Assembly (NCBI RefSeq): GCF_029168945.1
Contig: NC_083609.1
Span: forward strand, 21,697,501-21,761,500
Reading direction: 5' to 3'
Origin: Cannabis sativa
Lineage: Eukaryota > Streptophyta > Magnoliopsida > Rosales > Cannabaceae
Length of the DNA stretch: 64,000 nt
Position 1 is the first letter of the stretch. The number at the start of each line of letters is the position of its first letter. Shown here piece after piece: positions 1 to 36,600 of the stretch. Position numbers and translations under genes: made by a program. The notes under the pieces are model-generated. The model was not told the DNA's origin, did no database searches, and saw nothing but the letters and a program-made list of their open reading frames with translations.

Positions 1-978
1 CCTAGGCAAAACTACCTTAGTAAAACTGAACCAAGAGGCAAAGCCCACAAAAATGACTCAAAGTCAAAGTCACAAAGGATAAGGTGGTAGAACACCATTA
101 TTGCAACAACAAAAACAAAAAAAACAAAATAAAACAAAACAAAAGAGAACAAACAACAAAACAACAACCCATGATTGAAAAAAGCCATTAACTAGAGCAA
201 CAAACAACACAACAAAGAGAAGAGTCACCTGAGAAAAAAGACGAGAAACTTCAACGAGTCTTACCATCGCCAAGCAACATCAACTATCAAACCAAAGCCA
301 TCCAAACTTCCCTCCCACAAACCAAGGACCCAGAATACCAAAGATAGACCACTGGAGCACTCAAAATAGAGGCCCAACTCTGTCATCAACAGAACCTAAC
401 CACCCTAGGACCCTCATCGCACCATATCAAAGCAATGGCACCCCCAAAACTCACCCTCACACAACCCCGAGCAATGTAAGTGCAAACCCAAGCTCCTCAA
501 CCACCAACCAACATCAATGGAGTATTGACATTACCACCCACACCTACCAAAAATGAATTCTTTCCCAATCCCAACACCCGTAGCCAACCTCCACCAAGAT
601 TAGGTCCTTTTTTTTCGAGAATTTCGAATTAGGATTTCTCAGGAATTGTAACATTAGGCTATACTTATGACTACAACAAATTAATTATCATTTTTGAATT
701 TGCCAATACCATCCAAGATTATAAAATTTATTCCCAATATCACATCAAGTATAAGGCCATCTTTCACCTCAATGTTACAACTTTCTATAAAGTGTTGATT
801 ACAATGCCAATGATTTCAACCTCCTAACATTTATGGACTTTGGTTAAGCAACACTCTCAATGTTTATTTGTCAAAATAATCCGATCCTTTATGCTTCATA
901 TGTTAAAAACAAACCGAAGACAAAAAGATTAGAGTGCAGAGGAGATGATGAGGAAGAAAAACAAAATAGAACTTTACC
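1..978. other. Intergenic sequence with probable repeat relic, no gene seen
   Basis: No supportable coding exon is visible here. Positions 1-600 are relatively GC-rich for the window and end in a T-rich run (about 607-616). On the minus strand this reads as a G/T-rich text with stops in every frame, which is what an old retroposon fragment looks like, but I cannot assign a family. Positions 620-970 are AT-rich spacer containing the 3' flank of the MIA40 gene. Confidence 0.4.
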
Positions 979-12960: not shown

Positions 12961-13052
12961 TTTATACATTGGGATATTTAGCTAAATTACCTTAAAAGTT
13001 TTTTTATTACATGTAACTTTCATTTTTAAAAATTTAAAAATTTAACTATACT

Positions 13053-13298
13053 TGCTATAAATATTAATAATTATGTGATGTCCAAATCTTTTATTTATTA
13101 CCATGAATTGTAATGAACATTCTTTTTTTCCTTAGTTTCTCTTTTTTCTTAGTTTCTTAATATCTGTATTTGTATAAATAGGGGTTCATCCCATTGGAAT
13201 AAACAACTCAGAAATTCTCATTCTCTTTCTCTTTCTCTCTTCATCTTCTTCTTCTTTCTTCTCATCTACTTTATATTATGTTATATTATTTTATAACA
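13053..13298 (+). repeat. 5' LTR of element A
   Basis: 246 bp, TG...CA ends. It contains a TATAAATA box at 13173-13180 followed about 30 bp later by a CT-rich transcribed-leader-like stretch (TCTTTCTC repeats). The same order is present in the 3' LTR. The box sets the expected plus-strand transcription start. Confidence 0.9.
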
Positions 13299-13628
13299 CG
13301 TTATCAGCACGAGTCTCTGCCCAAGCTTCAAGCATGAGTCTCTGCCTAAGATCCAATGTAAGTATTTTGTTAAAGTTCTTGAATTGTTTCAAAGTCACGA
13401 TACACTAAATATATATTTATATATATACTCATCTGACTGAAACAATTTCAATGATCTTTTTTTTTTTATTTTATTTTTATCTATATATCTATATATTATA
13501 TATGTATGTATATGTTTTTATATATTTATTATTGATTTCATATATATATATATAATGTTCTTATCATTCATAATATTTACAATATATGTGTGCCTATGAT
13601 ATGATAGAGAAAATCTATATAAATTATA

Positions 13629-13845
13629 CATATATCCAAAAGATTATATATTATCGATAAAATATTGCATATATCCTAAAGATTATGCATCATCGATAAA
13701 ATATTGCATATATCCTGAAGATTATGCATCATCGATAAAAAATAATATATATCCTGAAGATTATGCATCCTCGATAAAATATTGCATATATCCTGATGAT
13801 TATGCGTCCTCAATAAAATCTTGCATATATCCTGAAGATTATGCA
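13629..13845 (+). repeat. 39-bp tandem array (about 5.5 copies) in element A
   Basis: Unit of 39 bp with the core ATATCCTGAAGATTATGCAT followed by a CATCGATAAAATATTG-like part. Copies differ by a few bases. Each full unit holds an inverted repeat GCATA ... TATGC around TATCCTGAAGAT (for example 13706-13727), which ties the array to the hairpins dispersed through the rest of the interior. Confidence 0.9.
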
Positions 13846-13970
13846 AACGTAATATTCATTATATAGTTGATGGATATATAATGAAAGAGATGAATACATA
13901 TTTATATATATGTTCTTGTATTCTTTGAGGACAATGAAAAGTAATCTAATATCGATATAGATTTTGACAA

Positions 13971-16900
13971 ACATTTCCTGAAGTAAATGTTTTATATTTG
14001 TAAAAAAAAAAATGATTGTATTTATGTGAATACAACTAAAGAATCATTAAAAATGATTATTATTGATGCAATTTTATAGTAGGTTTTGAATATCCAAAAA
14101 GAATGTTAAGAAAATTATATTGAAACATCAAAGTATAAGAATAACAATGAGCATGACTAATGTTATTTAAATACATGAGGCATGTATTTATTGTTCATCA
14201 TTCCCTGCAGAGAATGATACGAATTGAAGTCAATTACTTTTAAAGATTCCTCGTATTAGTCATGTTATTATACATTGTTATTACTTGCAATGTTGGAAAT
14301 TATTGAATCTGACATATATTAAAGATTAAATTTTGCATACATCTTGGAGACTATGCAAAAATTACATTCATATATTCTTTGAAATATCGTAAAAGAAATT
14401 GTTGAATAATTTCTTATATTTTTTATGGATGAACAAGTTAAATTTTTAAGAAATTTATAATAATGTTCTACTTGTTCAACGTCATTCCCCGAAGTGAATG
14501 TAATGATTTTAAATAATCAATGACATTATTTACTAATCAAATATTTCCAGAAAAAATAGAAACAACTAAAAGATGAGATACCACACATAATCAAAGTGCA
14601 TGAAATTTATATATCATGTGTGAAATTGAATAATAGTGGTCGCGTACCTGTAGTACGGACATACTTATAATCAAGATAAAAGTATACTTGATTATTGAAT
14701 AGAAAGTGAATTGTACAAATTTATTGTACATTTAGAATATTTAAATATCATTCCCTAAAGAGAATGAATAGACATGAAATTCTATTTCAAAGAATATAAA
14801 TTTCACATATATTGGCAATGCCAAAAGCAAATTAATATATACATATTTTATTATTTCTTGAAATCAATAGTTTCAAACTATTGTTAGTACAGGATATGTA
14901 TATATATATAGTTACTATATAATTCAGTTTGCATATTCCCAGAAGTGAATATATAACCTACTAACATTTGTTAGTGATCCAATATAATCAAAGTGATAAA
15001 GAATCACAAAATGGTTATTTGAAAAGCTTCCTGAAGAAGTCTTACATACAATTTCTACTTGGAGTAGTAAAATATATTTATATGTACCTAGATGTATAAC
15101 TTTTATCTAGTTATAAAAATGATAGGAAATAACTTATTATATGTACTGGTTGTACATTTAAATATATAATATATCAAGTCATGATAATTAGACTGATGAA
15201 TAGTCTATTAATAAATTAGACGACTTGTTAAAAAGATACCAGGAAAAATGAATGATATATTATGGTTATATCTATTTGACCATTACAATAACATGATAAA
15301 GTTGTCATGTATCTTTTAAATTATACACATCATTGAATTGATGATAGTGATTCCTGAAGAAATATAAAGTTTGATAAACATAATAGTGACTCCTGAAGAG
15401 TGTATATGTTTTAGAGAATAATATAATTATATTATTCGTGTATATAAAAATGAAACTTTTTATGATTACTTATATGTTGTAGTGATTTTACATTACCTTG
15501 TGAAAGTTTCATTGAAATACAAATTATAGTGAACCTGAAGTTCATGAATTGAATTATTTTGACATGATCAATCATATGCAATAAATTGTCAAAGAATTTG
15601 ACTAAATTTTGTTGAAGAACCAGAAGATTCTTCTCATTGTTAATTTATAAGGCTCAAAAGAAGAATGTGCATATATTTGCACATAGAAAATATTTAAATT
15701 ATATTTCCTTAACAATCTTGAGCTATTGTTAGATTTTTATTGCATAATTTCTTATCGATGTGATAAGATTATATAATCATGCATTTACAAAATGTGTAAA
15801 TTTATGTATTTCTAATTATACACGTATGACTCATTCTTAGAAATGAATTAAGTTCATAAGGATTGAACTTGAAACTAAAGTTTATTGAACCTAAAATTCA
15901 ATGTCATATAGTATATATGAGTTTAAACAAATATTGATTCATTGTGATATATTGAAATCCCTACAGGTGTATTAATATTATTAGATATCACAATTTTTAA
16001 AAAATCTCTCGATCAGGGGGAGAGAAGCAGTTGGGATCGATGATAATTTTTGAAAAATGATCCTTGCACAAAGTATATAAGAACAATATAGTTCAAAATG
16101 ATATATACCAACTGCAAATCAATATTATTCATAGTTGAGATAGAATGAGTTGAAAACGCCTGAAGCGTAAATGAACAATGTAGAAATTATTAATAAATGT
16201 TCATTTGATTTGCCCTGAAGTTGTTAAATCTAGAGGTACTCATGGAGATACCTTAATGTTATAAAGTATTAAAATGATAACCGTGATGAAAACAGTACTC
16301 GAAAAGACTCCCAAGAGAAGTTAGACATAACACATTTCATCATAATTGAATCCCTGAAGTGATTCGTTATAGGTACCTATAAATGATAAACATATTTGAA
16401 AAATATGTAATTTAAAGAGATCTCTATAAGTTATGTCAATATGGGAGGAAATTATCATTTATTAAAATTTTTGTCGACAATAAATATTGAATGTTTGCAT
16501 ATGCAATAAACTAACATGAGATAGCAAGGATCATGGTATTAGATTTGTCGAGAATCATTGACTTACATTTTGATTTTTGGCCAAAATATTATGACGCAAT
16601 CCAGGCAAATTTACTCACATAAAGTGAAGTAAGACCTGTAGGGTGTGCAAATAAATATTTCTAATGAGAAATTTGCATATATGTATTTGTACATAATGAA
16701 TTGTTGTACAAAGTTTGCATAGACATGAGATTGATTGAAGTAAGGCTTAAATATTGAGAAAATATAATCATTATTTGATTATAGCCTGGAATATATTTTA
16801 TGAGGATTTATAAGCGTCACATAAATGTTGCAACAAAAGATTATTTATTTGGAGCTCCTAATATAGTGAGAATTTGAAATAAGCCTTATCTAAAAATTCT

Positions 16901-17174
16901 AGAAGAATTTAATACATGTCTTAAGTGATATAAATTCTAAGTCGTGCGCACTATATGACAAAGATCTTTGTATGAAATAAAGACATGTAAGTAAATTATT
17001 GTTTGAAAAATACGTATGGTTGTCTATGCAGTATAAATACGTAAATTATACGTTGTGATAGACTCTTGAAGAGTTTTTGATTAATTGAAGAACAAACTTT
17101 TATTTCTTTTGTATATCGAGAAATATTAAATGTATAAAGTTTGTTCATTAGTATTGAAGTCCTGAAGTACTTCA
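13971..17174 (+). repeat. Dispersed hairpin family with conserved CCTGAAGT loop
   Basis: Eight sites have a perfect 5-7 bp stem around an 8-nt loop: 13971-13990 (stem ACATTT, loop CCTGAAGT), 14197-14218 (ATCATTC, CCTGCAGA), 14483-14500 (CATTC, CCCGAAGT), 14748-14767 (TCATTC, CCTAAAGA), 14933-14952 (ATATTC, CCAGAAGT), 15614-15633 (GAAGAA, CCAGAAGA), 16348-16365 (GAATC, CCTGAAGT) and 17155-17174 (TGAAGT, CCTGAAGT). Stems differ between sites but always pair; the loop is nearly constant. Related short forms with a CTGAA-like loop occur at 14643-14657, 15530-15544, 16156-16168, 16894-16910 and 17062-17074. A longer relative sits at 14331-14360: a 9-bp stem TTTTGCATA around a CATCTTGGAGAC loop. 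Confidence 0.85.
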
Positions 17175-17567
17175 TATGTATTAAGAATTATAGATATATG
17201 ATCATTTGATATGAAAATTAAGATCATACAACAAGATGGAACAAATATATGGTATTGGAGTACCATCATTGTCACAAATGAAATTTATATTATCATTAAT
17301 GTGTTATGTTCATATCTACTTGAAATGTTAAATTTTAGTATGAACAAGATTGTATATACACATGAATGATACAATTAGTTGGATAAATATTAATGTTCCA
17401 CGAACCCCTCATCTATAATTTAGAAGTCCATACATACTCTGGAAGAGTTATAGAAAATATATGATCAAAGATTATATATGGTGATATTTTAAAAGTGATA
17501 ACAATAATCTTATGAGATATATTATCACCAAAAGAATTATGGATCATATGTGCATGAGGGGGAGACA

Positions 17568-17750
17568 TATTCATGTTGCACTCTTTTTCCCTTAGTTCAG
17601 GTTTTGTCCCAATGGGTTTTCCTGGCAAGGTTTTTAACGAGGCAACTTACAAATAGTTATGAATATGAAATATATATTGTACTCCTTTTCCCTAGCTCAG
17701 ATTTTGTCCCACTGGGTTTTTCTGGCAACGTTTTTAACGAGGCAACTATA
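17568..17750 (+). repeat. Duplicated Copia 3'-region motif (two copies)
   Basis: Two copies, about 17,568-17,646 and 17,672-17,750, share the order: TACTCTTTTTCCCT-like, TTTTGTCCCA(C/A)TGGGTTTT, CTGGCAA, GTTTTTAACGAGGCAACT. This block is familiar from the region upstream of the 3' LTR in several plant Copia families. A third, decayed copy lies after the RNase H remnant at about 18,138-18,192. Confidence 0.75.
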
Positions 17751-17827
17751 AATCATGTTAACATACTTGCATTTTATGAAGCAAGTAGAGAATGTGTGTG
17801 AGTGAGATCATTGACATAGCATATTCG

Positions 17828-18120
17828 GGAAACATATGGATTGCACTCAATAAAGAAGTATCAACCCAAGCAATTCTCTATGGATAATACTGCTTGCATC
17901 GTTCAACTAAAAGGAGGTACATTGAAGGAGATAGAGTTAGAACACATTTCACGAAATTCTTCTTTATACGCTTCAAGAAAATGCATATTGGTGTTCAACA
18001 TATTCAATCAAGTGTCAATCTTACAAACTTATTCACAAAGTTATTACCAACATCAACATTTGAGAAGACGGCAGACAAGATCGAAATTCGTCGATTAGAA
18101 GATCTCCACAAATGCCTAAA
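17828..18120 (+). pseudogene. Copia RNase H C-terminal remnant
   Basis: The end of a Copia polyprotein is spread over two frames: MDNTACIVQLKGG in one, then a frame change and residues matching KHI..KFFF, NLTNLFTKLLPTSTFEK and RRLEDL in the next. These are the usual closing motifs of the Copia RNase H domain. At least one frameshift and in-frame stops make it non-functional. No reverse transcriptase or integrase could be recognised upstream. Confidence 0.8.
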
Positions 18121-18214
18121 TGAGGGGGAGTTAGTTTACACTACTCTTTTTCCTTTGATCAAGTTTTCAGCAAGATTTTTTATAAGGCAGTTATTATGGA
18201 CATCCAAGGGGGAG

Positions 18215-18476
18215 TGTTATAAATATTAATAATTATGTGGATGTCCAAATCTTTTATTTATTACCATGAATTGTAATAACATTCCTCTTTTCCTTAGTTT
18301 CCCTTTTTCTTAGTTTCTTAATATCTCACTCTTGTATTTGTATAAATAGGGGTTCAACCCATTGGAATAAACAACTCAGAAATTCTCATTCACTTTCTCT
18401 TTCTCTCTTCATCTTCTTCTTCTTTCTTCTCATCTACTTTATATTATGTTATATTATTTTATAACAATACTAACAT
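18215..18476 (+). repeat. 3' LTR of element A
   Basis: 262 bp, starting TGTTATAAATATT and ending TTATAACA. It is nearly collinear with 13,053-13,298, with small indels that make it 16 bp longer. It is followed directly by the ATACT duplication. Confidence 0.9.
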
Positions 18477-33644: not shown

Positions 33645-36600
33645 TCAGTACATATCAATTAATCCTAAATTCTGACGGTGCTTTTCAAATGCTGTCACGG
33701 CCAAGACTTTGGTAAATGGATCAGCTAGGTTGTCCTCTGTGTCAACTTTCTCAACTAGTACATCCCCTCTTGCCACGTATTCTCTGATAATGTGATACTT
33801 CCTTTCAATGTGTTTGCTTCTGTTGTGGCTTCGAGGTTCTTTACTGTTTGCTATTGCTCCATTGTTATCACAAAGTAAGACGAGAGGTTTTTCCATTCCA
33901 GGAACGACACCTATACTGGTGAAGAACTTTCTTAGCCAGACAAGTTCTTTAGCAGCTTCGGCTGCAGCTATGTATTCAGCTTCCATAGTCGAGTCCGATA
34001 TCGCGGTTTGTTTTGCACTTCTCCAAACCACTGCTCCACCCCCAAGAGTAAACACCATCCCAGATGTAGATTTCCTGTCTTCAAGACTTGCCTGGAAATC
34101 TGAATCAGTGTAGCCTATGGGATTTAAAGCACCACCCTTGTAGACTAACACAAGATCCCTTGTACTCTTTCAGTATTTCAGAATATACTTAACTGCATTC
34201 CAATGTTCATGTCCTGGATTAGACTGATACCTGCTCACGATTCCAACTGCATAACAGATGTCAGGTCTAGTGCATAACATTGCATACATTAGACTTCCAA
34301 CTGCAGAGGCATAGGGAATTTTCGCCATGTCCTCTATCTCTTAAGGATCAGTCGGAGACTGTTCCTTAGATAGACGAATACCATAACTAGAAGGCATGTT
34401 TGCCCCATTGGTGTTGTTCATGGAGAATCTCTCTAAGACTTTGTCTATGTAGGTTGTTTGAGAAAGAGCAAGAGATCTGTTCTTCCGGTTTCTGATAATT
34501 TGAATACCAAGAACATAGGCTGCTTCACCCAAATCTTTCATATCGAATTGAGTGTTAAGCCATTCCTTGATGTGAGTCATTTTCTTGACATTGTTTCCAA
34601 TGATCAAAATGTCATCAACATAAAGGACCAGGAATACTACTACTTGGTCTTCCTTGAGTTGGTAAACACAAGGTTCATCTTCACTCTGAAGAAAGCCGTA
34701 GGTCTTGATGATTTCATCAAACCTTTTGTTCCATGAGCGAGAAGCTTACTTAAGTCCATAGATAGACCTATTTAATTTGCAAACTTTCTTTTCCTGCCCA
34801 GGAAGAACATAACCTTCTGGTTGCTCCATATAGATGGTTTCTTCAAGTACCCCATTAAGGAAGGTAGTCTTGACATCCATTTGCCAGATTTCATAATCGA
34901 AAGAAGCAGCTATGGAGAGAAGAATTCGGATGGATTTGAGCATGGCAACAGGACTAAAAGTTTCCTCATAGTCTACGCCTTCTCTTTGGGTATAACCCTT
35001 GGCTACAAGTCTACCTTTAAAAGTTTTGACTTCGCCTCCAGCTCCTCTTTTCTTCTTGTAAACCCACTTGCATCCTATCGGATGATAGTCGTCAGGTGCG
35101 TCTACATATTCCCAGACTTTGTTCTTTTTCATGGAATCCATTTCTGAATCCATGCCGGCCGACCATCGTTTCCGTTGCGGACTAGCCATTGCCTGTTTAT
35201 AGGTTAATGGATCGTCTTCAATACCGTCACCTACGACCATATTGATTTCACCATCCAAGCCATAACGAGCAGGTTTTGTTGAAACCCTCCCACTACGACG
35301 AGGTGCGGTGATCTTCTGAACGGAAACTTTAGTAGTAGATTTCTCAGTTGGTTCAACTGAGGGAGTGGGATTGTCCTCTTCACGTGTGGAAGAGAACGGA
35401 ACATTGGAAGAACTTATATCTGAAAGCATTTCCTCCAACACTACTTTACTTTGTGATTTGAAATTCTTAATATAGTCATCTTCAAGGAAAGTTGCATTTG
35501 TAGAAACAAACACTTTATCATCCTTGCGGCTATAAAATAGTCCACCCCTAGTCTCTTTAGAATTACCGACAAACATGCAAACTTCAGTTCGTGACTCAAG
35601 TTTGTCGTCTTTCTTTCTTAAGACATGAGCAGGGCACCCCCAGATTCTGTAATTGCGTAAACTAGGTGTACGACCAATCCATAGTTCTAAAGGTGTCTTA
35701 GGGATTGATTTAGATGGAACAACATTTAAAATGTCGGTTGCCATCTGAATTGCATATCCCCAGAAGGACGTAGGTAGAGTTGAAAAACTAAGCATGGACC
35801 TAACCATTTCCAAAAGCGTGCGATTCCGTCTTTCTGGAACTCCATTTTGCTATGGAGTGCTAGGGGCGGTTAATTGGGATTCAATTCCAAGTTCAATTAA
35901 ATGATCTTTGAACTGCATATCCATATATTCTCCACCCCTATCAGTTCGCAAGATCTTTAATGATTCACCTAATTGGTTTTGAGCCAATGCATGAAATTCT
36001 TGAAACTTTGCAAATGTTTCAGATTTCTTATGCATAAGGTAAATATGTCCATATCTAGAGTAATCGTCAATGAAAGTGACAAAGTACTCATAACCACCTC
36101 GGGCTTTGACATTCAAAGGTCCGCAAACATCGGAATGCTCTAACCCTAGGGGTTGTTTGGCACGCTCTACCTTTGCAGAGAAAGAACGTTTAGTCATTTT
36201 TCCTTCTAGGCAGGACTCGCATACTGGCAATTCACCTAAGACGACATTTTTCAATGGACCGGCTTTGGTTAGCCTATTGAGTCTATCAAAGCCTATATGA
36301 CCTAAACGTAAATGCCATAGATATTTTTCATTATCATCAACGATCTCTTGCTTTTTGTGGTTTCTAGGTTTAGTTACTTTAAAAAGTTCGTTATGTAGGG
36401 CAAATGGTGTTTCTGGTCTAAGAACATAAAGCCCCTATTCCATGGATGCAACACAAATCTGAATGTCATTTCGAGAAATGGTAGAACCAGAATCCGAAAA
36501 ATCTAATTTGTATTGTTGCAATTGTAAGCATGAAACAGAAACCAAGTTTCTACTGAAATTTGGAATGTATAAGACATTGTCTAATTCCAAAATTCTGTTT

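What the first reader, a model, noticed from the sequence alone, without database searches (positions are those of the whole stretch)
13971..17174. Family of covarying mini-hairpins with a constant CCTGAAGT-like loop inside a Copia element
Seen directly: at least eight sites share an 8-nt core (CCTGAAGT, CCTGCAGA, CCCGAAGT, CCTAAAGA, CCAGAAGT, CCAGAAGA) flanked by perfectly complementary 5-7 bp arms. The arm sequence is different at almost every site (ACATTT, ATCATTC, TCATTC, ATATTC, GAAGAA, GAATC, TGAAGT). Different stems with a fixed loop is the pattern of compensatory change, or of repeated placement of a loop module. At about 75% AT, a 5-bp stem at one fixed spacing arises by chance at roughly 0.3% per site (my estimate), so eight such sites among some fifteen core occurrences is far from random. 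Inference: a structured RNA (packaging, protection from silencing, translation control) or a DNA mechanism that builds inverted repeats around a short seed.
Basis: partly seen in the sequence, partly recalled or inferred. Interest (0 to 1): 0.9.

Follow-up and report, generated by a model that had tools for sequence, protein, structure and literature searches.

The report
Repeated RNA hairpins in a retrotransposon
A young, protein-less jumping element in this plant-like genome carries about twenty small RNA hairpins with almost the same loop but different stems, and similar hairpins lie inside the protein-coding genes of its coding relative, which suggests a repeated RNA tag, perhaps for loading the element's RNA into its particles.

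Summary
In window 13851-17560 the sense strand has 17 sites within one mismatch of CCTGAAG (antisense 1; shuffles mean 2.2). Fifteen have perfect arms of at least 3 bp around a 7- or 8-nt loop; eight have at least 5 bp (shuffles 0.007). Permuting arms between sites lowers the summed pairing from 69 to 17.3, maximum 41 in 5000. The host is a 5.4-kb non-coding Copia element; LTR pairs differ by 0-3 substitutions in the 14 fetched copies with both LTRs.

A coding sister Copia family aligns with parts of it in order, and its gag-pol reading frames carry the same hairpins: 8 against 0.52 in synonymous-codon shuffles (0 of 2000); CCTGAAG and CCAGAAG tie as its commonest loop among all 7-mers. Two other Copias have none.

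Best explanation: dispersed sense-RNA hairpins read in trans, most likely Gag-binding packaging signals, kept after coding was lost. Hairpin family: near certain. RNA function: about 0.8. Packaging: about 0.45; binding is untested.

The parts
13048..13052 (.). target-site duplication ATACT (left)
   Evidence: read, matches 18467-18471; 8 of 14 other copies show exact 5-bp flanking repeats
13053..13298 (+). 5' LTR
13299..13587 (+). primer-binding region and leader; LTR plus leader 13048-13587 is 71% identical to the coding sister family
13629..13845 (+). 39-nt tandem array, 5.6 copies, five CCTGAAG-like cores; the 13821-13846 unit folds as TTGCATA(T)ATC-CTGAA-GATTATGCAA
13969..13992 (+). hairpin, 8-bp arms, loop CCTGAAGT
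14197..14218 (+). hairpin, 7-bp arms, loop CCTGCAGA
14483..14500 (+). hairpin CATTC-CCCGAAGT-GAATG; 17 of 20 identical to sister gag hairpin L076 511, inside a 62% segment (14380-14519); L076 511 also resembles 14204
14643..14657 (+). hairpin, 4-bp arms, 7-nt loop CCTGTAG
14748..14767 (+). hairpin, 6-bp arms, loop CCTAAAGA
14933..14952 (+). hairpin, 6-bp arms, loop CCAGAAGT; some copies have G.U in the stem
15027..15039 (+). hairpin CTT-CCTGAAG-AAG; possibly homologous to L075 2684 (register only)
15389..15401 (+). hairpin ACT-CCTGAAG-AGT; next to a 39-nt duplication (15352-15390) absent in 4 rows listed
15530..15544 (+). hairpin TGAA-CCTGAAG-TTCA; aligned with L075 2955 (15 of 20 identical)
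15614..15633 (+). hairpin GAAGAA-CCAGAAGA-TTCTTC; aligned with L075 3072 (18 of 20 identical)
15884..15902 (+). hairpin ATTGAA-CCTAAAA-TTCAAT; other copies have CCTGAAG or CCTAAAG; perhaps homologous to L074 614
16156..16168 (+). hairpin ACG-CCTGAAG-CGT
16348..16365 (+). hairpin GAATC-CCTGAAGT-GATTC; aligned with L074 902 beside a shared AGGTACCT; weak in local context
16894..16910 (+). hairpin AAATT-CTAGAAG-AATTT; aligned with L074 1454 and L071 start; innermost pair C-G in both sisters, U-A here
17062..17074 (+). hairpin ACT-CTTGAAG-AGT
17155..17174 (+). hairpin TGAAGT-CCTGAAGT-ACTTCA
17436..17448 (+). weak member ACT-CTGGAAG-AGT
15401..17990 (+). decayed pol with insertions: segments of 61-78% identity, in order, to sister PR-INT, RT and RNase H coding sequence
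14380..14658 (+). decayed gag: segments of 62% and 68% identity to sister gag coding sequence (L076)
18215..18466 (+). 3' LTR, preceded by a purine-rich tract
18467..18471 (.). target-site duplication ATACT (right)

Best explanation
The element is a recently active, non-coding Copia derivative. Its genomic RNA presents about twenty short hairpins whose loop is close to CCUGAAG(U/A) and whose stems are free to vary as long as they pair. Similar hairpins are written into gag and pol of the coding sister family. Shown: the hairpins, their one orientation, their presence in both families, homology of several sites, stronger constraint at core sites in transposing lineages once methylation hotspots are set aside. 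Inferred: they are read as RNA by a trans-acting protein that sees the loop on any stable stem, most likely the nucleocapsid part of the family's Gag, so that many weak sites together mark the RNA for packaging. A derivative that lost all coding needs only this mark plus LTRs and primer site, so selection kept and probably multiplied the hairpins while the rest decayed.
For: Loop and arm statistics. Non-coding interior, young copies. Interior aligned in order with sister gag-pol. Sister reading frames: 8 hairpins vs 0.52 by codon shuffle, 0 of 2000; CCTGAAG ties for first of 16,384 7-mers as loop; 12 sense sites within 1 mismatch, arm sum 38 vs 11.9 permuted, 0 of 3000; antisense 6 sites, arm sum 2 vs 2.5. 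The sister hairpins start at all three codon positions (coordinates), so no single peptide motif explains them. Second sister copies: L077 shows the four gag hairpins of L076; L078 shows 2684, 2955, 3072 and L079 shows 902. Two other Copias: 0 hits, no arm >=4 and no excess. Model R1, trained on window sites only, finds L076 505 and L077 327 (2.6e-5) and L075 3066 (0.002). Islands: 4 of 12 sister hairpins lie at or under the top 3.4% of background matches (p 0.0005). Three-family site with C-G to U-A exchange. Constraint: core 7-mer +-6 nt, shared vs private 8:78 against 118:408, OR 0.35, p 0.004, hotspots excluded; nine site definitions gave p 0.0025-0.040. Sense G.U vs antisense-type wobble among stem variants shared by >=3: 8:1 against 29:35 private, p 0.03.
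Against: No binding or packaging data. Folding energy is no better on the sense than the antisense strand (z -1.2 vs -1.4); in 210-nt context 9 of 17 sense hairpins have mean pair probability >=0.8 but 16353, 15392 and 14488 have 0.02, 0.00 and 0.18, and the antisense value is higher at 12 of 17. Stems with G.U are not in excess. Without excluding CG/CHG transitions the core constraint is not significant (OR 0.66, p 0.14; core arms plus loop OR 0.90, p 0.88); 8 of 150 control 7-mers were as low. With those transitions excluded the effect over all stems weakens (OR 0.77, 0.67, 0.48; p 0.31, 0.17, 0.015). Variants shared by exactly two copies show no wobble bias (9:7 or 6:5). Eight of 12 sister hairpins show no ungapped island in the window element. 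By the fixed rule the antisense of L074 has 2 hits (10 of 300 shuffles reach that) and the old relative L071 1-1100 has none (its one candidate lies in the unscanned first bases). R1 found none of the L074 hairpins. Dispersed packaging signals proposed for STNV-1 had no discernible role in vivo (PMC6475782, abstract). [quoted passage not shown]
Confidence: 0.45

Rival explanations
1. The hairpins are functional sense RNA elements but for another step: binding of a host RNA-binding protein (export, stability, protection from silencing), pausing or jumping of reverse transcriptase, or translation control in the coding sister.
For: All sequence evidence for RNA function applies equally. No test here separates partners.
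Against: Translation control would not explain retention in an element with no coding capacity (inference). Many dispersed sites with one loop fit multivalent recognition better than a single regulatory switch (inference).
Confidence: 0.33
2. Mutational origin: template switching in replication or reverse transcription makes and repairs perfect palindromes; loops look alike because they descend from a few copies or from a frequent PEG-type codon string.
For: Stems are mostly perfect Watson-Crick, wobble stems not in excess; perfect hairpins of any loop are in excess in other tiles of the window too; template switching is reported to create and repair hairpins (PMC8794818, abstract and opening text). 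Some sister loops do fall on PEG-type codons.
Against: It does not predict a fixed loop in one orientation (17 vs 1), sister hairpins at all three codon positions, or reduced fixed change at cores. Flanks of the sites are unrelated, so recent copying of larger modules is unlikely.
Confidence: 0.12
3. The functional molecule is the minus-strand cDNA, where the same sites are DNA hairpins with loop ACTTCAGG, for example guiding reverse transcription or recombination.
For: Loop orientation alone cannot tell sense RNA from its complement; antisense folds as well or better.
Against: Wobble asymmetry among variants shared by >=3 copies favours the sense RNA (8:1), on small numbers.
Confidence: 0.07
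4. Relics: hairpins existed by chance in the coding ancestor and persist only by descent.
For: Several window sites align with sister hairpins.
Against: The sister hairpins themselves exceed codon shuffles (0 of 2000); the window element has sites without any seen counterpart; the innermost pair at 16894-16910 differs on both sides between families.
Confidence: 0.03

Closest known systems
Dispersed packaging signals of single-stranded RNA viruses and hepatitis B virus (PMC6281560, passages; PMC7612645, start of abstract in a search listing)
   Same: Many stem-loops along one RNA, shared short recognition motif, variable sequence around it
   Different: Here in an LTR retrotransposon and in a non-coding derivative; no protein binding shown
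LARD and TRIM non-autonomous plant LTR elements (PMC7215508, passages)
   Same: LTRs, no coding capacity, assumed mobilisation in trans, reported conserved RNA folds
   Different: The passages read do not describe a repeated hairpin with one loop; here homology to a coding sister is shown
Ty1 packaging and dimerisation region (PMC8396678 and PMC9503155, passages; PMC5454406, start of abstract in a listing)
   Same: Copia-type element whose RNA has cis-acting structures linked to Gag
   Different: The Ty1 signals described there are near the 5' end; here sites are spread over the interior
Template-switch hairpins (PMC8794818, abstract and opening text)
   Same: Perfect stems, compensatory-looking arms
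   Different: No conserved loop expected (my reading)

Membership tests
Ty1/Copia LTR retrotransposon | Terminal repeats with short target-site duplication | tested here: met
   ATACT in the window
Ty1/Copia LTR retrotransposon | Domain order integrase before reverse transcriptase and RNase H | tested here: met
   sister family: gag_pre-integrs and Pol_BBD (L075), SH3_retrovirus then RVT_2 (L074); the window element is its decayed relative. The RNase H piece had no Pfam match; its identity is recalled
Non-autonomous LARD-type element | No protein-coding capacity | tested here: met
   longest ORF (ATG/GTG/TTG start) overlapping the element 111 aa
Non-autonomous LARD-type element | Mobilised in trans by an autonomous partner | not testable with these tools
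   a coding sister with 71% identity in LTR and leader exists; partnership not shown
Dispersed packaging signals | Multiple stem-loops with a common motif | tested here: met
Dispersed packaging signals | Motif binds the capsid or Gag protein | not testable with these tools
   no binding data
Dispersed packaging signals | Sites alter packaging or assembly | not testable with these tools
   no particle data
Template-switch hairpins | Excess of perfect stems without excess of wobble stems | tested here: met
Template-switch hairpins | No preference for a loop sequence (my reading of the mechanism) | tested here: not met
Any Rfam family | Match at gathering score | tested here: not met
   0 matches in the window

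The most novel reading that the evidence does not exclude
A plant Copia lineage uses a multivalent RNA code, many copies of one loop on interchangeable stems spread through gag and pol, to have its RNA packaged; a parasite derivative discarded every gene but kept and amplified the code, so its sequence is a natural readout of what packaging needs.
Probability: 0.4. Interest if true: 0.9.

Novelty: new variant of a known kind. Interest (0 to 1): 0.8.

Why it matters
In my judgement it is still open how plant LTR retrotransposon RNAs are chosen for packaging and how protein-less elements are mobilised. A non-coding element freed from codon constraint that keeps one hairpin type turns this into a short binding experiment with a defined motif and natural variants, and gives an LTR-element parallel to the debated dispersed packaging signals of RNA viruses. 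My literature searches (rows listed: 20 of 291, 10 of 14, 9 of 9, 7 of 7, 10 of 15, 10 of 33; open-access papers only) showed no title or abstract start describing such hairpins in an LTR retrotransposon.

Tried and rejected
Rfam: nothing. L050's 768-aa open gag-pol frame was first taken for the autonomous partner; it belongs to a different Copia nested in a family copy. L039 is a family copy interrupted by another element. Two hairpin patterns in IMG/VR gave one contig each; neither contig has a comparable set of hairpins. Whole-region folding energy: weak, not strand-specific. Copying of larger modules: flanks of sites unrelated. RNase H relic protein search: 5 fragments resembling the same family, no organism given. 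Window 15534 was first aligned with L074 614 (E 1e-4), later with L075 2955, which is in order with 15620/L075 3072; both sister sites have the hairpin, and a second L075 stretch fits window 15400-15532 almost as well (E 4e-4), so this segment is the least certain. Homology of 15030/L075 2684 and 15890/L074 614 rests on register only. The reversed-sequence control was run for L074 only, not for L075 or L076.

Limits: the sister was read from pieces of three copies (L074/L075, L076/L078/L079, L077), one lacking part of gag; none was shown intact. Only the best 40 candidates are scored per genome search, so copy numbers are candidate counts.

Full report
Observation. On the sense strand of 13851-17560 there are 17 sites within one mismatch of CCTGAAG, one on the other strand; 1000 dinucleotide shuffles give 2.2 on average and at most 8. 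Fifteen of 17 carry perfect arms of at least 3 bp directly around a 7- or 8-nt core, eight of them at least 5 bp around the 8-nt core (shuffle mean 0.007). When right arms are permuted among the 17 sites the summed pairing falls from 69 to 17.3, at most 41 in 5000 trials: arms match their own partner, although three sites share TCATTC. Counted on sites chosen for their arms, the 8-nt set pairs in 97.9% of cells against 61% after shuffling and the 7-nt set in 82% against 51%. The 39-nt tandem array at 13629-13845 adds five core-like units. Flanks of the sites are not alike beyond the hairpin.

What carries it. The element runs 13053-18466 with LTRs, a 5-bp duplication ATACT, and no reading frame over 111 aa. 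The genome holds many close copies: for a 1.1-kb interior query 40 were scored of 991 candidates, 39 of them at 97-98% and one the window itself. Of 20 copies fetched, 14 had both LTRs in the stretch and differ at 0-3 of 244-254 positions; the window copy is older, 6 of 244. Among 21 copies (L051-L070 and the window) the median is 17 core sites, 14 with arms, on the sense strand and 1 and 0 on the other.

Origin of the interior. A pattern search gave a decayed relative, L071, and its 3' end led to a second family, 40 scored of 1867 candidates, L071 itself among them. Pieces of that family encode gag with a zinc knuckle, pre-integrase, integrase-associated and reverse transcriptase domains (the zinc-knuckle matches lie just under their curated cut-offs). 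LTR and leader are 71% identical to ours over 13048-13587, and its coding sequence aligns in order with parts of our interior: gag at 14380-14519 and 14587-14658 (62 and 68%), PR-INT at 15401-15544 (61%, the least certain), the RT reading frame at 16400-16612 and 16822-16981 (63%), RNase H end at 17750-17983 (78%). A reversed-sequence control for the L074 piece gave nothing better than E 0.27. So the non-coding interior is best read as a decayed gag-pol with insertions.

The sister carries the hairpins. With a rule fixed before L076 was seen (loop within 2 mismatches, arm at least 4 for 7-nt or 5 for 8-nt loops), its sense strand has three in L074 and three in L075, and L076 adds three. Over six reading-frame pieces 8 are found against 0.52 in 2000 synonymous-codon shuffles, maximum 4; over all 16,384 7-mers CCTGAAG and CCAGAAG tie as best loop with 9 of 38 hairpins. 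In the window element itself CCTGAAG has 14 of 75 and two neighbours of it have 15. Arms permuted among the sister's 12 close sense sites fall from 38 to 11.9; its 6 close antisense sites have an arm sum of 2 against 2.5. At the looser 2-mismatch cut the antisense strand shows a mild excess (42 vs 27.6, reached by 28 of 3000), and by the rule the antisense of L074 has 2 hits. Two other Copias in this genome have none; the old relative L071 1-1100 also has none by the scan, which skips its first bases, where AAATC-CCTAAAG-GATTT lies. Model R1, built only from window sites, finds L076 505, its copy L077 327 and L075 3066, but none in L074. Second copies have the same sites where read.

Homologous sites. 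L076 511 matches 14482 at 17 of 20 positions, L075 3072 matches 15614 at 18, L075 2955 matches 15528 at 15, L074 1454 matches 16893 at 15, where 476 background 20-mers average 12.6; 4 of 12 at or under the 3.4% tail has p 0.0005; the other 8 are nearer background by this ungapped measure. L074 902 and 16353 align beside a shared AGGTACCT with a one-base gap. L074 1163 is a strong hairpin whose window counterpart 16635 has no arms. At 16894-16910 the innermost pair is U-A here and C-G in L074 and L071, and the pair fourth from the loop is A-U, G.U and A-U.

Selection inside the family. Private variants stand for neutral decay, variants shared by at least 3 of 45 rows for change in transposing lineages. 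Stem columns have fewer shared variants than unpaired ones (OR 0.45-0.68, p 0.004-0.098 by hairpin threshold); with CG and CHG transitions left out this weakens (OR 0.48-0.77, p 0.015-0.31). At core sites the effect shows only when those transitions, to which the second C of the core is prone, are left out: 8:78 vs 118:408, OR 0.35, p 0.004, range over nine definitions 0.0025-0.040; with them OR 0.66, p 0.14. Shared stem changes keep sense-strand G.U rather than the antisense kind, 10:2 vs 38:48 private (p 0.014), 8:1 vs 29:35 with hotspots out (p 0.028); in a strict set 7:1 vs 35:36 (p 0.06). Variants shared by exactly two copies show no such bias. The evidence is consistent but modest.

Against. 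Folding energy is not sense-specific, some hairpins are predicted weak in context and the antisense value is higher at 12 of 17, wobble-containing stems are not in excess, and perfect hairpins of any loop are over-represented elsewhere in this window. The last two fit a template-switch origin of stems (PMC8794818). That mechanism does not by itself supply a fixed loop in one orientation, at all three codon positions, in two families.

Mechanism. The simplest reading is a loop-reading protein in trans. For an LTR element whose derivative keeps LTRs, primer site and these hairpins, Gag is the natural candidate, with many weak sites acting together as in the dispersed packaging-signal model (PMC6281560). 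This step is inferred. The absence of an in vivo role for such signals in STNV-1 (PMC6475782) and the low specificity of Ty1 Gag (PMC8396678) are reasons for caution.

Verdict. Hairpin family: near certain. Functional RNA: about 0.8. Packaging: about 0.45.

Noticed in passing
window 17551-17760: A block like ctctttttccc...ggttttgtccc(a/c)atgggtttt...aacgaggcaac occurs twice; similar motifs before the 3' LTR of other Copias are recalled, function unknown.
   Followed up: partly
window 27-33, 38-45, 56-63 kb: Another repeat family in several copies; an element like it interrupts a family member in L039. Several of these tiles also have an excess of perfect hairpins.
   Followed up: partly
L050: A different Copia with a 768-aa open gag-pol frame sits inside the leader of a family copy.
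   Followed up: partly
window 15352-15390: A 39-nt stretch between two core sites, of the same length as the leader array unit, is absent in 4 of the rows listed.
   Followed up: no
second C of CCTGAAG sites: Recurrent C-to-T and C-to-A changes at this CHG position across sites and copies; the C-to-T ones fit methylation decay.
   Followed up: partly
L075 2146-2479: This sister copy lacks the first part of gag that L076 and L077 have.
   Followed up: no
L012: A solo-like older LTR of the family (86%) lies beside a gene that looks like a cytochrome P450 (recalled, not searched).
   Followed up: no
window 33645-36254 (-): Copia pol reading frames of another element without these hairpins.
   Followed up: yes
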